This document shows positions 8,788-43,887 of a stretch of 43,887 bases of DNA, one piece after another. Below the pieces are notes generated by a model that searched no databases, had not been told where the DNA came from, and saw only the letters and a list, made by a program, of their open reading frames with translations. Within the stretch, counting starts at the first letter, position 1; every line of letters starts with the position of its first letter. Location of the stretch: positions 1 to 43,887 of the forward strand of contig JACPZZ010000020.1 of assembly GCA_016195275.1 (NCBI GenBank), written 5' to 3'. The position numbers and the translations under genes were made by a program. The DNA is from Candidatus Aenigmatarchaeota archaeon (lineage in GTDB: Archaea > Aenigmatarchaeota > Aenigmatarchaeia > JACPZZ01).

Positions 8788-11310
8788 ATGTACGAGATTA
8801 TTGTAGGCCGCAATTCGGACGACCTGAAAAAATACGGTTCTATCGGAACAGCCTACATAGGAAAGCATGTTGTCGGAACGGGCGAAGATGCGCACACCAC
8901 GAGCAAAATACTTCTTGACCTCATAAGGCCGCACGTGATGCTGGTATGCGGCAAGAGGGGCAGCGGAAAATGCCTGCACGGGGACACTCTAATAACATTA
9001 AGTGACGGCTCTGTTGCGCCGATCAAAGACCTGGCAAACGATACAAGAAGTGTTCTCGGCTTGAATAATGACCTTAAAATCGGCGTCCTGCAAAAAACGG
9101 AGTTTTTCAAGAGACGCGTGGACAAATTGGTAAAAATCAGGCTGCGGAGCGGGAAAGAGATAAGACTCACGCCGGAACACCCGCTCCTTACAATCAAGGG
9201 CTGGAAACAGGTTAACGAATTGTCAATAGGTTCCAGAGTAGCAACGCCCAGAACACTGGATTGTTTTGGGAACAAGGAGTTGGAGGATTACAAAACAAAA
9301 CTCTTGGCATACCTTATAGCCGAAGGGCATTTGGGAAACGGATTCGTATTGTTCAGTAATAGCGACCCGGAAATGATGAGCGAATTCAAAAGCTGCGTCG
9401 AAGAGTTTGTTTTATCCAATCCTGTGAGAAATGAATTTGGCCAGTTTTCCAAAGGAAATTATGGAGCCAATACCAAATCTTCGATTACCAAATGGTTGAT
9501 AGGCCTAGGGCTATATGATAAAAGGTCGGCCGGCAAATTCATACCTGACTGCGTTTTTAATTTGCCAAGAAATCAGCTTTCCTTGTTTTTGAACCGCCTT
9601 TTCAGTTGCGACGGAAGTTTGTATAACAAGAAAGGAAGGAATCGTACCCAATGGGAGATCTCCTACTCATCAAGATCCGAGATACTGATAAGGCAGGTGC
9701 AGCATCTTTTATTGCGCTTCGGTGTATTGTCGAGAATAAGGCCCAAGATCACAAAAATCAACGGGAAAAGGATACCATCATTTGAAATTGTTGTTGGCAG
9801 TGAATCTGTAACGACCTTCATAAAGAGGATTGGATTTTTCGGCGAAAAAAAAGGGTTGCAAAAGGTGTATACGGCAAACGAGCACGTAATAAAGAGGAAT
9901 CCAAACACAGACACTATACCAGAGGGAATATGGGACATATACAGACCCAAAAACTGGGCTGAATTGGGCAGAAAAATGGGTTATTCTATGGGCAAAGCGC
10001 TTAGAACAAGCATCAATTATTCCCCGTCAAGGCAAAAGCTTTTGCAGATGGCGGAAGCTGAACAGAATGAAAATTTGGCGTTGCTCGCCAAATCCGACAT
10101 ATTCTGGGACGAGATAATAATGATGGAAGAATTGGAAGGCAGTTTTGATGTTTTCGATATATCGGTGCCAGAATTTCACAATTTTGTCGCGAATGAAATA
10201 ATTGTTCATAACAGCTACTCGGCTGGCGTGATCGCAGAAGAAATGGCTGCGCTGCCAAAGGAATTAAGGGATAATCTTGCATTTATCATTATCGACCCGA
10301 TGGGCATATACTGGTCAATGAAAAACCCCAACGAAAAGGATTCCGACCTGCTGCGCAAATGGGACTTAAAGCAAAAGGGCGTTGACATCAGCCTTTTTGT
10401 GCCGGGCTCCAAGATAGCCGAGTACGAATCTGCGGGCATATTGTGGGACCATACAATATCGCTGCCTGCCGGAGAATTTACGGCAGAGGACTGGGCTATA
10501 ACCTTCAACATAGAAATGTTCAGCGATGCGGGAGTTTTGCTGGGGCGGGCCATAAAAAACCTGAAAGAGAAATCAACTGCGTACGGCGTAAAAGACATCA
10601 TAAACGAGATCGATTCCGACAAGCGCGCGGACCAGAAACACAAGGACGTTTTGCGCAGCCTGTTTGAGAACATAGATTCATGGGGCATATTCTCAAAGGA
10701 GAAAATCTCCCTTGAAGAGATGTTCAAGCCCGGCTCGATATCCGTTATCGATATTTCGCATTACGAAGGCTGGGCCATAAAAAACCTTTTCGTCAGCCTT
10801 ATTTCCAAAAAAATTTATCAGGCAAGGCTGCTGTCAAGGAAAGAGGAAGAGGCCAAGTCGATTGCGGGCGAGGAGAAATCCGGAATGCCAATGGTCTGGT
10901 TAATGATCGACGAATCGCACCAGTTCCTGCCGAACGACGCGAAGACAACATCAACGGAGGCTTTGTTAACTCTTGTTAAACTGGGCCGCGAACCGGGCAT
11001 ATCCACGGTTTTCATAACCCAGCAGCCCTACAAACTGCATCCGGATGCGTTGTCGCAAACGGACGTGGTTTTGTCGCACCGCTTAACTTCAGAGCAGGAT
11101 GTTAAAGCCCTTGAAACTGTCATGCAGACATACCTCCTTAACAACATCCAAAAAAGCATCGACGACCTTCCGAAATGGAAAGGAACGGCAATAATACTTG
11201 ACGACAATTCCGAGAAATTGTACAGCTTGGTTGTGCGCCCGCGCACAAGCTGGCATGCGGGCGGAAGCCCGATCGCGATCAAAAACGATCAAGGCACCAG
11301 GAATAATTAG
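8788..11310 (+). CDS. HerA/FtsK-like (DUF87-type) ATPase containing an in-frame intein
   Basis: The split P-loop GKRGSGK|...|SYSAGVIAEEM is restored on removing the intein; WLMIDESHQFLP Walker B; STVFITQQPYKLHPDAL. HerA-like architecture. Confidence 0.88.
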   Translation: MYEIIVGRNSDDLKKYGSIGTAYIGKHVVGTGEDAHTTSKILLDLIRPHVMLVCGKRGSGKCLHGDTLITLSDGSVAPIKDLANDTRSVLGLNNDLKIGVLQKTEFFKRRVDKLVKIRLRSGKEIRLTPEHPLLTIKGWKQVNELSIGSRVATPRTLDCFGNKELEDYKTKLLAYLIAEGHLGNGFVLFSNSDPEMMSEFKSCVEEFVLSNPVRNEFGQFSKGNYGANTKSSITKWLIGLGLYDKRSAGKFIPDCVFNLPRNQLSLFLNRLFSCDGSLYNKKGRNRTQWEISYSSRSEILIRQVQHLLLRFGVLSRIRPKITKINGKRIPSFEIVVGSESVTTFIKRIGFFGEKKGLQKVYTANEHVIKRNPNTDTIPEGIWDIYRPKNWAELGRKMGYSMGKALRTSINYSPSRQKLLQMAEAEQNENLALLAKSDIFWDEIIMMEELEGSFDVFDISVPEFHNFVANEIIVHNSYSAGVIAEEMAALPKELRDNLAFIIIDPMGIYWSMKNPNEKDSDLLRKWDLKQKGVDISLFVPGSKIAEYESAGILWDHTISLPAGEFTAEDWAITFNIEMFSDAGVLLGRAIKNLKEKSTAYGVKDIINEIDSDKRADQKHKDVLRSLFENIDSWGIFSKEKISLEEMFKPGSISVIDISHYEGWAIKNLFVSLISKKIYQARLLSRKEEEAKSIAGEEKSGMPMVWLMIDESHQFLPNDAKTTSTEALLTLVKLGREPGISTVFITQQPYKLHPDALSQTDVVLSHRLTSEQDVKALETVMQTYLLNNIQKSIDDLPKWKGTAIILDDNSEKLYSLVVRPRTSWHAGGSPIAIKNDQGTRNN
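8971..10212 (+). mobile_element. Intein (Hint domain plus LAGLIDADG homing endonuclease) inserted in the Walker A motif
   Basis: Begins with Cys (CLHGDTLITLSDGSVAPIKDL), contains a TPEHPLLT block B-like motif, two dodecapeptide-like motifs (LLAYLIAEGHLG, FLNRLFSCDGSL), and ends EFHNFVANEIIVHN followed by Ser (+1). 1242 nt = 414 aa. Confidence 0.95.
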
Positions 11311-12575
11311 TGACATACCCCCACCCCTAAAGGATGTGGGCTTCTTGCTTCAATGACGGAACTGTTGTTACATCTCCACAAGCGTTACTTCCCGTCTGCC
11401 CGACGGTAGCTCTTATGAGTATATTTCGTGCAGCATTCAGGTCTCGGTCAATTGACAGACCACAAGACGGACAATTGTGGACTCTTTCCGACAATTCTTT
11501 TTCCACGAGTTCTCCACAATTACTACACATCTTTGTTGTGTTTTTTGGGTCTACGAATACAATTTTGCAACCAGCACTTTCAGCCTTGTAGCTAATCATA
11601 TTCGCAAACGTATTCCATCCAGCATCGTTGATTTGCTTGCCAAAGTTCTGTTCTGACATTTCTTTAGAGGCAAGCTTCTCAAGAGCTATGAGGGAATAAG
11701 TATTGACAAATCTTGTTGAAGTCTTATGAAGGAAGTCAGTCCGTGTATTGGCAACTTTCTCGTGGAGCAAAGCAACCCTATGCTTGGCTCTCTTTCGATT
11801 CTTGCTTCCTTTCTTTTTCTTCGATAGTCTCTGTTGCAATAGAGCAAGTTTCTTTTCATACTGTTCCGGATGCCTTGGATTCTTTATAACTTCCTTATTT
11901 GAAAGGACTGCGAATTTTGTAAGCCCGAGATCGATGCCGACTTGTTCTCCTTGATTTATTTTCGGAGTTTGAGGTTCAGTTTCAATACAGAATGTGGCGA
12001 ACCATTTGCCTGAAGATTCTCTCTTCAAAGTGAGGGTCTTTATTTTGCCTTCAATTTCCCTATGCTTCTTGATGTTTATTTCCCCGAAGGGGGTTGCTTT
12101 GAGTTTCTTATCAAGACTAAACCCGGCTTGTGGATAGTTCAGACTTTTTATCCGATCTATACTCTTGAAGCGTGGGTATCCGCACTCCTTGCCCTGCTTT
12201 CTCATCTTGACCATGCGCCATAACGCTTTCTGAAGCCTGTGAGAAAGCGTCTGGGCTACTTGCGAATACAAACCGCTGTCCTTTACCATTGTTTGCATTT
12301 CGTTTTTTGTGAGGAATTTCTTTGTTTCGTCATATTTTTTCTTGTTAGCTTCAAGGAGCATGTTCCATAGATTCTTTTCTATCCAGAGATGTTCTTTCAT
12401 TTGCGTTACCTGTTTCTTTGATGGATAAATTCTGAATTTATAGGTTCTCATTACATCCCCTTCTGTTGGGTATGACACGCCCTGTATTTATGCATTTTGC
12501 TTGCAGCGTTCCGATATGTTCGCTCTCATCCCACAGCTGAAGCATATGGGATTTCCCGCTCGCTTTCGTTAAGGA
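11311..12575 (-). mobile_element. IS200/IS605 (IS607-like) family element with tnpB only; right boundary approximate
   Basis: Begins one base after the ATPase stop. Hairpin-forming end on the minus strand, GAAGCCCACATCCTTTAGGGGTGGGGGTATGTCA. Opposite side has the stem ATCCCA-CAGCTGAAGCATA-TGGGAT followed by TTCCCGCTCGCTTTCGTTAA, typical of such element ends. No TnpA found. Confidence 0.7.
11327..12451 (-). CDS. tnpB: RNA-guided endonuclease TnpB (IS200/IS605 OrfB)
   Basis: MRTYKFRIYPSKKQ N-terminus; RuvC motifs GIDLGLTKFAVLS, LIALEKLASKEM, DRDLNAARNI; zinc ribbon CSNCGELVEKELSERVHNCPSCG. All catalytic motifs present. Confidence 0.95.
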   Translation of the reverse strand: MRTYKFRIYPSKKQVTQMKEHLWIEKNLWNMLLEANKKKYDETKKFLTKNEMQTMVKDSGLYSQVAQTLSHRLQKALWRMVKMRKQGKECGYPRFKSIDRIKSLNYPQAGFSLDKKLKATPFGEINIKKHREIEGKIKTLTLKRESSGKWFATFCIETEPQTPKINQGEQVGIDLGLTKFAVLSNKEVIKNPRHPEQYEKKLALLQQRLSKKKKGSKNRKRAKHRVALLHEKVANTRTDFLHKTSTRFVNTYSLIALEKLASKEMSEQNFGKQINDAGWNTFANMISYKAESAGCKIVFVDPKNTTKMCSNCGELVEKELSERVHNCPSCGLSIDRDLNAARNILIRATVGQTGSNACGDVTTVPSLKQEAHIL

Positions 12576-39487: not shown

Positions 39488-39562
39488 GGGCCCGTGGCGT
39501 AACCAGGACTAGCGCGGAAGGCTTCGGACCTTCATGTGCGGGTTCAAATCCCGCCGGGCCCT
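39488..39562 (+). tRNA. tRNA-Arg (anticodon TCG)
   Basis: Acceptor GGGCCCG/CGGGCCC; anticodon arm GAAGG-CTTCGGA-CCTTC (TCG at 34-36); T-arm GCGGG-TTCAAAT-CCCGC. Confidence 0.93.
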
Positions 39563-39613
39563 CACCCTTTCGGGTATGGAACCTTTATATGCCGGTACAC
39601 CCAATGGAGATGG

Positions 39614-39799
39614 GTGGAGCAGAAGTACAGCTATCTTCTTTCAGACGCGGACATTCGGCGCTGGCACGCCAATTTAGCTAGAGGCTCACTCATCACTGCA
39701 AACGTGTATCTCAAACGACTTGGCTACCTCTGCGAGATGCACAAGGTGTCACCCCAGCAGATCGCTGCTTTTGCGGATCGCCCCGCTCAAGTCCTGTGA
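39614..39799 (+). pseudogene. Truncated tyrosine integrase (N-terminal core-binding/SAM-like domain only)
   Basis: VEQKYSYLLSDADIRRWHANLARGSLITANVYLKRLGYLCEMHKVSPQQIAAFADRPAQVL*; lies 52 nt after the tRNA. Box A-like CTTTATAT (39583-39590) sits about 25 nt upstream of the GTG. No catalytic domain follows. Confidence 0.6.
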
Positions 39800-39966: not shown

Positions 39967-40350
39967 TTAGTAGTGGTCTGGCGCGTCGATTGTGCGCCTC
40001 ATTCCAAATGGAAGACTCTGCTGACGCAGCTTCAGGATGTTCGTGCCCTGCGCCACGTACTCCGGCAGCACCGAGCGGCTGAGATAGGCGGACTGCGTGG
40101 GACCCATGTACTCCGGCGGCTGCTTGCTGAACAGCGGCAGCGGTTGCGGGAATCTCGTCTTTGGAACACGCCGATTCAGCATACCTTCGAGCGAGTTCCT
40201 ATAAAGCGCCCTCGCTTCAAAATCTCGGTTCGGATAGACCCTGTTCCTGTTCGGCCTGTTGGCGTACGAGACCTTATGAGTTTGTCTCGCCTTAGCTGCC
40301 TTCGCTCTCTGCTTCTTGTAAACCCACCTCGGGACCTTTCGGTTGGACAT
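39967..40350 (-). CDS. Hypothetical basic protein
   Basis: 127-aa ORF preceded by the strong SD AGGAGGTGAGCG-ATG; K/R-rich N-terminus. Confidence 0.6.
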   Translation of the reverse strand: MSNRKVPRWVYKKQRAKAAKARQTHKVSYANRPNRNRVYPNRDFEARALYRNSLEGMLNRRVPKTRFPQPLPLFSKQPPEYMGPTQSAYLSRSVLPEYVAQGTNILKLRQQSLPFGMRRTIDAPDHY

Positions 40351-40360
40351 CGCTCACCTC

Positions 40361-40615
40361 CTAGAATCCGTCGCATGACTTGTAGCCGCATCGGACACAG
40401 AACCAGCACGCCCGCTGACGTTGAAACTGCGTGCCGCAGCCAGGGCATGATTCCCCATCATTGGCCGCAATGCGGGTAGCGATGCCGCAGCCCTGCGAGA
40501 CTGGAGTCCTAATGTGCGACAGGCTCCATCCTCTGCGGCAAAGCTGATTCATTGGTCTTATCGATCTCCATGTGCTTTTCTTGAGTCCAGGTTTAGCTGC
40601 GTCTACCAGTGGCAA
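40361..40615 (-). CDS. Small multi-cysteine zinc-ribbon protein
   Basis: C-terminus CGIATRIAANDGESCPGCGTQFQRQRACWFCVRCGYKSCDGF; start uncertain. Confidence 0.5.
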   Translation of the reverse strand: MPLVDAAKPGLKKSTWRSIRPMNQLCRRGWSLSHIRTPVSQGCGIATRIAANDGESCPGCGTQFQRQRACWFCVRCGYKSCDGF

Positions 40616-41378
40616 TGACCTTCGCTTTTACGCCCGCTGACTCAAGATCGGCGGTCACGATGGATGCCTTCTCTCTGGTTAGTCCAGATATGATCTGTAC
40701 TGGGGCCCGCTCCACCAGTGCCTTGGCTCCCTCCAAATCAATGCCATCGACCACTTCGCGTACTTTCTTGATCCCGGCTACCTTGTTAGGGCCAACACCC
40801 AGAAGGACGACGGCCCAGGCGCAAGCCTGATCCGTAGCCTCATTCGCCGCCCCATCAAGCGGCTCTTGTGAGGCCTGTTCGAGGATCTCCTGGAGCTGCT
40901 TGTCGAGTGCGGTCGCCTGGGTGGGCTTGTTCTTCGGTTCAAAGGCGCGCAGAACCTGTTTGGGCGCCTTGCCTGCGACGACCACTAGGGAGTATATGCG
41001 GTCCATTCCGATGGCCTTGGCCAGCATCCTGTCGAAGACGTACTTGAAGGCGCGCGAATCGAAACACTTCGCAGGGCCGACGATGTCGAATGCCACCCCC
41101 AAATCGCCGTCGTCGTTGATTACGGCCTTCCCCACTCCTTTTCTGTTGAAGAAGGCGACCACCTGGGCCATCTGCCTCTGCTTGTCCTCGGGAACGTTGC
41201 CCAAGCCCCCGATGTAGAGGTAGCCTTCGGTTATGCCCTCGTCGATCCCCTCTGTAACAGTGGCCTGATAGCGGCGCCCACGGTACCCGAACGGCACGAC
41301 CAGGTCTCCGTCGCTGTCCACCTCATATCGGATGCCCTCCGAGTCGAAGAACCCCTTGCCTGAGTTGATGATGTCCAT
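40593..41378 (-). CDS. YbjN-like N-terminal domain fused to a bacterial ribosomal L7/L12 C-terminal-like domain
   Basis: N-part IRYEVDSDGDLVVPFGYRGRRYQATVTEG...VINDDGDLGVAFDIVG; C-part WAVVLLGVGPNKVAGIKKVREVVDGIDLEGAKALVERAPVQIISGLTREKASIVTADLESAGVKAKVIA (bL12-CTD pattern). SD CAGGAGGTTGC before the ATG. Confidence 0.75.
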   Translation of the reverse strand: MDIINSGKGFFDSEGIRYEVDSDGDLVVPFGYRGRRYQATVTEGIDEGITEGYLYIGGLGNVPEDKQRQMAQVVAFFNRKGVGKAVINDDGDLGVAFDIVGPAKCFDSRAFKYVFDRMLAKAIGMDRIYSLVVVAGKAPKQVLRAFEPKNKPTQATALDKQLQEILEQASQEPLDGAANEATDQACAWAVVLLGVGPNKVAGIKKVREVVDGIDLEGAKALVERAPVQIISGLTREKASIVTADLESAGVKAKVIATGRRS

Positions 41379-41630
41379 AGTGCAACCTCCTGTCGGGCTA
41401 ATTTACCTGTTTGCACGTGACGCCGCCGGTTTGGTCTTGTCGCCTATACTGCCTACTACTACCCTCAATCTGAGTTTTTGCTTCTCAAACCCACGCTAAC
41501 ATGGACTTTGGCAAAGTTTCACAACAGGGTCGATGCGCCCTATCGCACAGTTGAGCTACCAGAATCCCAGCAATTATTCTAAGTTGCAGTAGAGCGACAA
41601 CGAGGCAGAAAGATGGCTAGCGAGAGCCGT

Positions 41631-42335
41631 CTAAATGATTTTTAACGGCACGTCATTACCAGAGGAGTCGTACATGGCTACAAGTGTTTTCCCGTTGGCC
41701 GCGATCCGCCTGTAGAGGTCACTCATGTAGTCGTCTGTGAGCGCCTCGACCAATTCGCTAATGTCGAGACGCCCGTGGTGGACTACCCGTTTTCTTAGGC
41801 TTTCAAGCCTTTCAGCCTGAACGAGCAGGGCATCTCTGGCCGGTGGACCGCGCGCATTTTGGATCAGCCCATCTAGGAACCGCTTGTTGAGGCCGTCGCT
41901 GAGGGCCACGCCGCTCACGTAACCCATGAAACCAGCCACAATGGTCCCGTTGAAGGGTCGCTCGTACTTCTGCTCCAATAACTTGAGTCGGGTAAGGTCT
42001 GGCAGGGCAATCCAGTCGTGAGATTCAGATGAAGGTTTCGTGTTAATCGTGGGATGAGAGTGAACTTCTGAGATGACGTAGCCGTGGCCACTATCGATCA
42101 CGTTACTGACGATGTCGAGCCAGCCCCCTAGGTCGTTCCGTGAGTACCTGAATGGCACATCCCGCCATGTATCCATCTGTTTGTCCGCGTGAGAGGAGGC
42201 GAGAAGAGCGAAATACTCCGCGCCCTCAAGGGCTTCCCGCAGATGTATCGATCCATCCATGTCCAACCCAAGGTGTCTTCCCATTGCCGCAGATACAAAT
42301 TCACGCAAAACAGGGCGATGGAGTCTGTAGCTCAT
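41631..42335 (-). CDS. Possible JAB/MPN-like (JAMM-related) protein
   Basis: GHGYVISEVHSHPTINTKPSSESHDWIALPDL resembles the JAMM HxHP...S..D motif with non-canonical spacing. TATA-like TTATAA about 27 nt upstream of the ATG at 42335. Confidence 0.5.
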   Translation of the reverse strand: MSYRLHRPVLREFVSAAMGRHLGLDMDGSIHLREALEGAEYFALLASSHADKQMDTWRDVPFRYSRNDLGGWLDIVSNVIDSGHGYVISEVHSHPTINTKPSSESHDWIALPDLTRLKLLEQKYERPFNGTIVAGFMGYVSGVALSDGLNKRFLDGLIQNARGPPARDALLVQAERLESLRKRVVHHGRLDISELVEALTDDYMSDLYRRIAANGKTLVAMYDSSGNDVPLKII

Positions 42336-42502: not shown

Positions 42503-42943
42503 ATGGCGATACCTTTTATGAGTTACGAGGAATTCCTCGTGGCGCTTCGCGACATCTACGTGAAGCCCGGGAGCAATAATCCCGGACTGGGCCCTGATCC
42601 TGAACTCTTTGATGGGATAGCTCGCCTGCCGGAGAAGGTCCAACAGCTTGGCCGACGTGAGAGGTCCTTACTCACCAAACCCCTTCTGAGATTTTTTCAA
42701 GAGGATGTCAACCGCTATGCCGGGGTCAAGAGACTGTGTGTCCAGGAGTACTGGCTTGTACGAGAGCGGACAAACATGAGGGAAGCGATTACGGAAGTGT
42801 TGGAGGAAGAAATGCGCCAGTCTCTCCAGAAACTAAACAAGGTTCGGAAATCTCGTGTCATAACTGATATGGAAACTTGCGTCCGGCGGAATATGTTCGA
42901 TAGTGCTGCCGACTCAGGCCTCGCGGCACTTCTGTTGAGTTAG
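42503..42943 (+). CDS. Hypothetical protein
   Basis: 146-aa ORF with SD-like TAGGAG upstream. Confidence 0.6.
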   Translation: MAIPFMSYEEFLVALRDIYVKPGSNNPGLGPDPELFDGIARLPEKVQQLGRRERSLLTKPLLRFFQEDVNRYAGVKRLCVQEYWLVRERTNMREAITEVLEEEMRQSLQKLNKVRKSRVITDMETCVRRNMFDSAADSGLAALLLS

Positions 42944-42969: not shown

Positions 42970-43749
42970 ATGGAAGGCTGCCTCAAAGTTCTAAAGCTTC
43001 AGGTGGGAAAACAACTCTCGGCGTCTGAAGCCGCCAAGCTCGCGAAGCAGAGCGAGATTGACGCACACCTAAAGGAATGCAAAAGTTGCCGCGAGTTCCA
43101 CACCAGCCTCGTGCGCAGGGTGAAGCTTCAAGAAGGATCTGACTTGTTCGATGCTTTTGTCGAGGAACGCCACCCTTCCCTGCGGGAGCTTGGCAAGGCT
43201 ATCACTGGCGAGATCAAGACGCAGTTCAAGACACTCGCCTCTCTCAAGCCCAACGAATGGTCTTTGGAACGGCCGTCAGGCGTTCTGGCCGCCTTGGGCA
43301 TGTCGTCTGGTGAAGAGGGGAGCGCGGTCAGCGTGGCTAGCCAGCTCGCACTCCTAGCGGTGGTTAGTGAGGCTTCCGGTCAAGAGCAACGGCCAACGGT
43401 GACCAAGAAAACGAGAGAGGAAACCATTCCCTTCCAGAACGAAGGCACGAGCACCACCGCCGCGACGGAGATCATCGCTAGCGAGTTGGCTATTACCGCA
43501 GTAGTGGCGCTGTCTGTGGTGTTCACCAAACGTATCCTGTGTTGCCATCGACCATGCGATGGTATGTGCGCCAAAATATGCCGCGCTGTTCCTTGTCAGC
43601 CCACGGCCAGTCCGGCCTCGTGTCCTCCCAAGACCGAATCACGCTTAGCTTTTCCGGCTCGTAGCGACGCATCTTGTTCACCATCGACTCGGAAGCGCAG
43701 AGCGCGACCCAGTTCTTCATCCATCGGGGATAGATCAGACTCGTCTTGA
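42970..43749 (+). CDS. Protein with N-terminal zf-HC2/anti-sigma-like zinc finger; C-terminal limit uncertain
   Basis: DAHLKECKSCREFH (HxxxCxxC); a hydrophobic segment AATEIIASELAITAVVALSVVF. Preceded by SD GAGGAGGAATATC-ATG. The last about 75 aa overlap a plausible minus-strand gene. Confidence 0.55.
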   Translation: MEGCLKVLKLQVGKQLSASEAAKLAKQSEIDAHLKECKSCREFHTSLVRRVKLQEGSDLFDAFVEERHPSLRELGKAITGEIKTQFKTLASLKPNEWSLERPSGVLAALGMSSGEEGSAVSVASQLALLAVVSEASGQEQRPTVTKKTREETIPFQNEGTSTTAATEIIASELAITAVVALSVVFTKRILCCHRPCDGMCAKICRAVPCQPTASPASCPPKTESRLAFPARSDASCSPSTRKRRARPSSSSIGDRSDSS

Positions 43750-43798
43750 TCACCTGCATATCAATGGGCGCTCCTGACTCAAATAGACGATGGTCCAC
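43523..43798 (-). CDS. Hypothetical protein
   Basis: YPRWMKNWVALCASESMVNKMRRYEPEKLSVIRSWEDTRPDWPWADKEQRGIFWRTYHRMVDGNTGYVW; globular-looking; follows a partial minus-strand CDS ending at 43813. Confidence 0.5.
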   Translation of the reverse strand: MDHRLFESGAPIDMQVIKTSLIYPRWMKNWVALCASESMVNKMRRYEPEKLSVIRSWEDTRPDWPWADKEQRGIFWRTYHRMVDGNTGYVW

Positions 43799-43812
43799 GC
43801 TGAGGTCGCCGT

Positions 43813-43887
43813 CTACTCCTCTCCGAGAGCTTCCGTGATGAGACGGTCCACATCCCGGTTAGTCTTGTCTGCGGCGTGTTTGGAGCG
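43813..43887 (-). CDS. C-terminal fragment of a minus-strand CDS (continues beyond window)
   Basis: Open to the window edge: RSKHAADKTNRDVDRLITEALGEE*; coding-like composition. Confidence 0.4.
   Translation of the reverse strand, partial: RSKHAADKTNRDVDRLITEALGEE

What the first reader, a model, noticed from the sequence alone, without database searches (positions are those of the whole stretch)
40593..41378. YbjN-like domain fused to a bacterial ribosomal L7/L12 C-terminal-like domain
The C-terminal about 75 aa follow the bL12-CTD pattern (NKVAGIKKVREVVDGIDLEGAKALVERAPVQIISGLTREKASIVTADLESAGVKAKV). bL12 is absent from archaeal ribosomes, and the CTD is the bacterial docking site for translational GTPases. 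A fusion to a YbjN-like/chaperone-like domain in a mobile-looking region suggests a decoy or modulator of translation factors, or a novel adaptor.
Basis: partly seen in the sequence, partly recalled or inferred. Interest (0 to 1): 0.65.

Follow-up and report, generated by a model that had tools for sequence, protein, structure and literature searches.

The report
Archaeal mobile-element chaperone–L12 fusion protein
A DNA island inserted next to a tRNA gene in an archaeon carries a real gene that joins a chaperone-like domain to the factor-docking domain of a bacterial ribosomal protein that archaea do not have; similar docking domains occur in phage proteins, but this pairing and an archaeal host were not seen before in what I searched.

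Summary
The gene is on the minus strand (41378→40593, 261 aa). Residues 189-253 match the bacterial ribosomal protein L7/L12 C-terminal domain (Pfam 3.4e-11). Residues about 3-149 are a YbjN domain: αβββαββα model at pLDDT 88, best PDB match the YbjN homologue DR1245. The gene lies in a GC-rich insert that starts exactly at the 3' end of tRNA-Arg. It shares genes with a second island of the same archaeal genome. The contig end overlaps another contig of this genome by exactly 141 bp, and that contig leads back into host genes that a sibling species keeps beside the same tRNA. So it is cargo of an integrated element, not a chimera. No other L12 domain above cut-off was found in 392 genomes of the host's relatives. 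The closest CTDs found are non-ribosomal Solirubrobacter paralogues (clade support 0.97). Most factor-docking residues are kept, but four near-invariant CTD positions differ. bL12-CTD fusions are already known in phages (Mizuno 2019), so this is a new variant: a new partner domain and an archaeal host. Most likely an element-encoded adaptor (chaperone domain plus docking domain). Direct action on translation factors is unproven; the host uses archaeal-type factors.

The parts
40593..41378 (-). 261-aa YbjN + L12-CTD fusion gene (P0001)
   Evidence: Open frame with ATG and AGGAGG; Pfam L12 3.4e-11, YbjN 0.0089
40932..41372 (-). YbjN / type III secretion chaperone-like domain (residues 3-149)
   Evidence: hhalign 95%; model pLDDT 88; Foldseek best hit DR1245 4h5b, E 3.2e-05
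40815..40931 (-). Linker (residues 150-188), probably flexible with one helix
   Evidence: Between the two domain matches; helix 155-169 only in the low-confidence single-sequence model
40620..40814 (-). Ribosomal L7/L12 C-terminal-like domain (residues 189-253)
   Evidence: PF00542 over cut-off; secondary structure b-a-a-b-a-b
41386..41391 (-). Shine-Dalgarno AGGAGG of the fusion gene
   Evidence: Sequence
39488..39563 (+). tRNA-Arg(TCG), insertion point of the element
   Evidence: ARAGORN; homology to sibling genomes G002 and G004 stops at its 3' end
39614..39799 (+). Truncated tyrosine-recombinase N-terminus (61 aa), TATA-like box about 27 nt upstream
   Evidence: 34% identity to a frame in same-class genome G105; assignment to integrases from sequence pattern
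39967..40350 (-). 127-aa element protein of unknown function
   Evidence: 90%-identical 296-bp segment on contig C24 island of the same genome
40361..40615 (-). Zinc-ribbon ORF; its longest form overlaps the end of the fusion gene
   Evidence: CPxCG...CxxCG motif; related copy on C24
41631..42335 (-). JAB/JAMM-like protein, probably leaderless with archaeal TATA box
   Evidence: Weak PADLOC JAB 0.009, Pfam Prok-JAB 0.095, HSHP motif
42503..42943 (+). 146-aa protein of unknown function
   Evidence: Only weak hits
42970..43749 (+). zf-HC2-like protein
   Evidence: Weak Pfam 0.01; strong SD
43747..43887 (.). 141-bp terminal overlap with contig C20 of the same genome
   Evidence: 100% identity, longest terminal overlap exactly 141 bp

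Best explanation
It is cargo of a roughly 7-kb element integrated at tRNA-Arg of an archaeal chromosome, encoding a non-ribosomal two-domain adaptor. Shown: the gene, both domains, the integration context, and kinship of the CTD with non-ribosomal L12-CTD paralogues rather than with rplL-encoded bL12. Inferred: the YbjN domain, by analogy with YbjN and type III secretion chaperones, holds a client polypeptide (perhaps as a dimer), and the tethered L12-CTD acts as a docking knob that brings the client to a partner protein, ancestrally a translational GTPase. In this host, which uses archaeal translation machinery, the partner is probably no longer bacterial EF-Tu or EF-G but a protein not yet identified, or the module is used when the element resides in a bacterium.
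For: Domains. Not a ribosomal protein: the bL12 N-terminal domain is absent and replaced by YbjN, and the host's relatives have no other L12 domain above cut-off. CTD groups with two Solirubrobacter non-ribosomal L12-CTD proteins (support 0.972). Integration: GC step from 0.46 to 0.58; homology to siblings ends at the tRNA 3' end; shared 90%-identical segment with a second island flanked by archaeal genes; 141-bp overlap leading to C20, whose host genes (dehydrogenase, LysRS-like) lie beside the same tRNA in G004. YbjN relatives act as chaperones or protein stabilisers (PMC3575483), and TY-chaperones occur in ADP-ribosylation-centred conflict systems (PMC9503650). L12-CTDs embedded in larger phage proteins, as in rIIB-like proteins (PMC6375957), show that mobile elements reuse the module.
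Against: No orthologue was found, so selection on the gene cannot be tested. No client or partner is known. Adaptor function rests on analogy. The insert has a truncated integrase, so it may be decaying. Only one genome and one assembly support it, and no reads were available.
Confidence: 0.5

Rival explanations
1. Translation-factor decoy or modulator: the CTD titrates or recruits EF-Tu/EF-G-type GTPases, most plausibly when the element is in a bacterial host.
For: K65, V66, A67, I69, K70, R73, L80 and K84 are kept; K65 and K70 are needed for EF-Tu binding (PMC10602876); phage bL12 domains keep factor-contact residues, and one phage bL12 fusion protein was found by mass spectrometry in ribosome preparations (PMC6375957); 4 of 5 element genes have a strong SD against 1 of 28 host genes (Fisher p 6e-4), fitting a recent SD-using host.
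Against: Host uses archaeal translation machinery; aEF1A docks on the aP1 tail (PMC6791870); V68G, G79D, K81E and E82G alter near-invariant positions of the CTD; two element genes look leaderless with archaeal TATA boxes, so the element is not purely bacterial.
Confidence: 0.2
2. Passive passenger: a bacterial gene carried in by the element that has no function in the archaeon and is decaying.
For: Neighbouring integrase is truncated; no orthologue in 156 phylum genomes, plasmids, phages or viral contigs; divergence at conserved CTD positions.
Against: Frame intact over 261 aa with a strong SD; both folds retained; core docking residues conserved.
Confidence: 0.2
3. Assembly chimera or bacterial contamination joined at a tRNA gene.
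For: The gene sits in the last 4.3 kb of the contig with different GC; bacterial-looking domains.
Against: Shared 90%-identical segment with an island inside archaeal contig C24; exact 141-bp overlap to C20 with host genes syntenic in G004; no second bL12 in the bin; listed contamination 0.25%.
Confidence: 0.05
4. Protease adaptor: the CTD works like ClpS, which shares the L7/L12-CTD fold (from memory), feeding YbjN-bound clients to a protease.
For: Shared fold (knowledge); chaperone partner domain.
Against: Sequence matches Ribosomal_L12, not ClpS, in Pfam; no protease gene recognised nearby apart from a weak JAB-like hit.
Confidence: 0.05

Closest known systems
Phage proteins with embedded bL12 domains (Mizuno et al. 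2019, PMC6375957), e.g. rIIB-like proteins of Pectobacterium CB4 and Erwinia N4-like phages
   Same: An L12-CTD as a module of a larger protein on a mobile element, core factor-contact residues kept
   Different: There the partner regions are not YbjN (rIIB-like and others) and the hosts are bacteria; here the partner is a YbjN domain and the host is an archaeon
Non-ribosomal L12-CTD paralogues of Solirubrobacter phytolaccae (locus L022, 116 and 189 aa)
   Same: Closest CTDs found (52% and 39% identity; clade support 0.972); no ribosomal N-terminal domain
   Different: Short or tandem L12-CTD proteins without YbjN, in a bacterium
YbjN family / DR1245 / AmyR (PF10722; 4h5b, 6vu7, 5fr7)
   Same: Same fold and alpha-beta3-alpha-beta2-alpha order
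   Different: These are stand-alone proteins; Pfam score here is below the family cut-off
Ribosomal protein bL12 (rplL)
   Same: C-terminal domain
   Different: No bL12 N-terminal domain; the host is an archaeon in whose relatives no bL12 was found

Membership tests
Ribosomal protein bL12 | L7/L12 C-terminal domain | tested here: met
   PF00542 43.8 bits against cut-off 25.9
Ribosomal protein bL12 | Whole-protein L12 equivalog score and N-terminal domain that binds the stalk base | tested here: not met
   NCBIfam L12 42.5 against 84.4 bits, matching only from model position 47; N-terminus is YbjN
Ribosomal protein bL12 | Factor-binding residues K65, V66, I69, K70, R73, L80, E82, K84 (list partly from memory) | tested here: inconclusive
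   All kept except E82, which is G; V68, G79 and K81 also changed
YbjN family (PF10722) | Profile score over the curated cut-off | tested here: not met
   16.7 against 22 bits
YbjN family (PF10722) | Homology by profile comparison and alpha-beta3-alpha-beta2-alpha fold | tested here: met
   hhalign 95%; model and fold search
Mobile-element bL12-domain proteins | L12-CTD inside a larger non-ribosomal protein on a mobile element | tested here: met
tRNA-integrated archaeal element | Insert begins at the tRNA 3' end with an integrase gene beside it | tested here: met
   the integrase is only a 61-aa N-terminal fragment
tRNA-integrated archaeal element | Repeat of the tRNA end at the other border | tested here: not met
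   No exact copy of 12 nt or more in C20:12000-18504; the true far border may be elsewhere or degraded

The most novel reading that the evidence does not exclude
A mobile element has carried a bacterial factor-docking domain into an archaeon, where, delivered by a chaperone domain, it engages archaeal translational GTPases (aEF1A or aEF2) and so modulates translation for the element's benefit.
Probability: 0.08. Interest if true: 0.8.

Novelty: new variant of a known kind. Interest (0 to 1): 0.45.

Why it matters
The L12 C-terminal domain is the bacterial dock for translational GTPases, and no other copy above cut-off was found among the host's relatives. Finding it on an element of an archaeon, joined to a chaperone-like domain, extends the reuse of this module by mobile elements from phages to archaeal elements. 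It also gives a small, testable protein for asking whether a bacterial factor-docking surface can find partners across domains of life.

Tried and rejected
Searches for relatives of the whole protein found none: GTDB contigs, viral contigs (also with the N-terminus alone), plasmids (only rplL), phages, and 156 phylum genomes. N-terminus in 400 Chloroflexota and 397 Actinomycetota genomes: only weak, unconvincing matches (the Actinomycetota ones were not read). CTD in 291 Chloroflexota genomes: the frames read among the 30 best matches all look like ordinary bL12, so a Chloroflexota source is not supported. Folding the whole protein without an alignment gave pLDDT 40 and was used only for secondary structure. 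A mixed alignment misplaced the YbjN rows and was dropped. A tRNA-end repeat at the far border was sought and not found. The 251-aa protein on C20 looked YbjN-like by eye, but hhalign gave only 23%, so it is not claimed. The sigma-70-like promoter scan was at chance level. Considered and rejected: chimera, ClpS-type adaptor.

Full report
OBSERVATION. The ORF at 40593-41378 is real and lies on the minus strand (ATG at 41378). It has an AGGAGG Shine-Dalgarno. Its length alone is only moderately unusual for this DNA; homology is what makes it a gene. Pfam finds Ribosomal_L12 at residues 189-253 (E 3.4e-11, over the cut-off) and YbjN at 10-100 (E 0.0089, below the cut-off). Solved bL12 chains are matched by the same C-terminal stretch.

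N-TERMINAL DOMAIN. hhalign of residues 1-160 with a set of Chloroflexota YbjN proteins gives 95% probability over residues 7-149, against at most 0.7% for 20 shuffles. [quoted passage not shown] Foldseek ranks DR1245 first, then type III secretion chaperones, E. coli YbjN and AmyR; a profile of the alignment also finds DR1245 by sequence. Caveat: the alignment rows were YbjN proteins, so the model is not fully independent of that choice.

C-TERMINAL DOMAIN. In an alignment with 103 L12 CTDs, P0001 keeps K65, V66, A67, I69, K70, R73, L80 and K84 (E. coli numbering) but has G for V68, D for G79, E for K81 and G for E82. V68 is V in 98 and A in 5 of 103; G79 is G in 102 of 103; E82 is E or D in all 103. 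K65 and K70 are known to matter for EF-Tu binding (PMC10602876). The tree places P0001 with two Solirubrobacter L12-CTD proteins that lack the ribosomal N-terminus (support 0.972). The alignment is short, so I treat this as moderate evidence.

HOST AND CONTEXT. The contig encodes archaeal TBP, MCM and S3ae, and contig C24 of the same genome encodes archaeal-type RadB, aIF-2 and RFC. GC rises from about 0.46 to 0.58 after tRNA-Arg. Nucleotide identity with sibling genomes G002 and G004 runs through tRNA-Arg and stops at its 3' end. A truncated tyrosine-recombinase N-terminus lies right behind the tRNA; its nearest match is in a same-class genome. A 296-bp stretch at 40166-40459 is 90% identical to part of a GC-rich island on C24 that is flanked by archaeal genes. 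The last 141 bp of the window are identical to the end of contig C20, the sort of overlap an assembler leaves between neighbouring contigs; C20 then runs through element-like genes into a dehydrogenase and a LysRS-like gene that lie beside tRNA-Arg in G004. The join is strongly supported but not proven, because a repeat could give the same overlap. I estimate the element at about 7 kb.

ORIGIN SIGNALS. Four of five element genes have a strong SD against one of 28 host genes (Fisher p 6e-4), so the element seems adapted to an SD-using host. Two element genes look leaderless behind archaeal TATA-like boxes (read by eye). The signals are mixed and do not name a donor.

RARITY. PF00542 scores above cut-off in 1 of 392 genomes of relatives (275 genera): this gene. 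No relative of the whole protein was found in any collection searched. The genome searches cover samples, not all genomes.

KNOWN COUNTERPARTS. Mizuno et al. found bL12 domains in seven phages, often inside much larger proteins and at varying positions (PMC6375957). I found the same in Pectobacterium, Erwinia and Enterobacter phage rIIB-like or similar proteins, a crAss-like phage, Streptomyces phages and a mobilizable cyanobacterial plasmid. YbjN-like TY-chaperones occur in ADP-ribosylation-centred conflict systems (PMC9503650). I found no paper describing a YbjN-L12 fusion, in a library that lacks most subscription journals.

MECHANISM. I favour a non-ribosomal adaptor: the YbjN domain holds a client and the tethered L12-CTD docks it onto a partner. 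The domains and the context are shown; client, partner and benefit are inferred. In the archaeon it faces the problem that aEF1A docks on the aP1 tail (PMC6791870) and that the CTD surface has changed at near-invariant positions.

VERDICT. A genuine and unusual fusion in a genuine integrated element: a new variant of the known reuse of L12-CTDs by mobile elements. Function is open.

Noticed in passing
G000:C24 about 38.5-78.2 kb (L013, L016, L017): Roughly 40-kb GC-rich island in an archaeal contig with a serine recombinase, HerA/VirB4-like ATPase, MalT/BTAD-type regulator, zinc-ribbon proteins and a tyrosine integrase at its right border; shares genes with the window element.
   Followed up: partly
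L195:1048-3147, L191:1027-3159, L192:1042-1968, L194:1168-1683: L12-CTD modules inside phage rIIB-like proteins (699 and 710 aa), a 308-aa crAss-like phage protein and a 171-aa protein of a MOBQ cyanobacterial plasmid.
   Followed up: partly
L022:3629-4558: Two neighbouring non-ribosomal L12-CTD genes in Solirubrobacter phytolaccae, one with what looks like a second, degenerate L12-like repeat.
   Followed up: partly
window 41631-42335: JAB/JAMM-like gene, apparently leaderless, with an archaeal TATA-like box about 24 nt before its ATG.
   Followed up: partly
window 8788-11310: HerA-like ATPase carrying an intein (intein N-terminal model 1.5e-13).
   Followed up: no
window 11327-12478: TnpB-type RNA-guided endonuclease gene (NCBIfam 3.3e-83).
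   Followed up: no
L126 just after 2184 (G002, behind its tRNA-Arg): A second, imperfect copy of the tRNA 3' end, suggesting another integration at the same tRNA in a sibling species.
   Followed up: no
window 39967-40350 and L013:12609-12935: Conserved 108-127 aa element protein (MSNRKVP...) whose C-terminus diverges between the two copies, function unknown.
   Followed up: no
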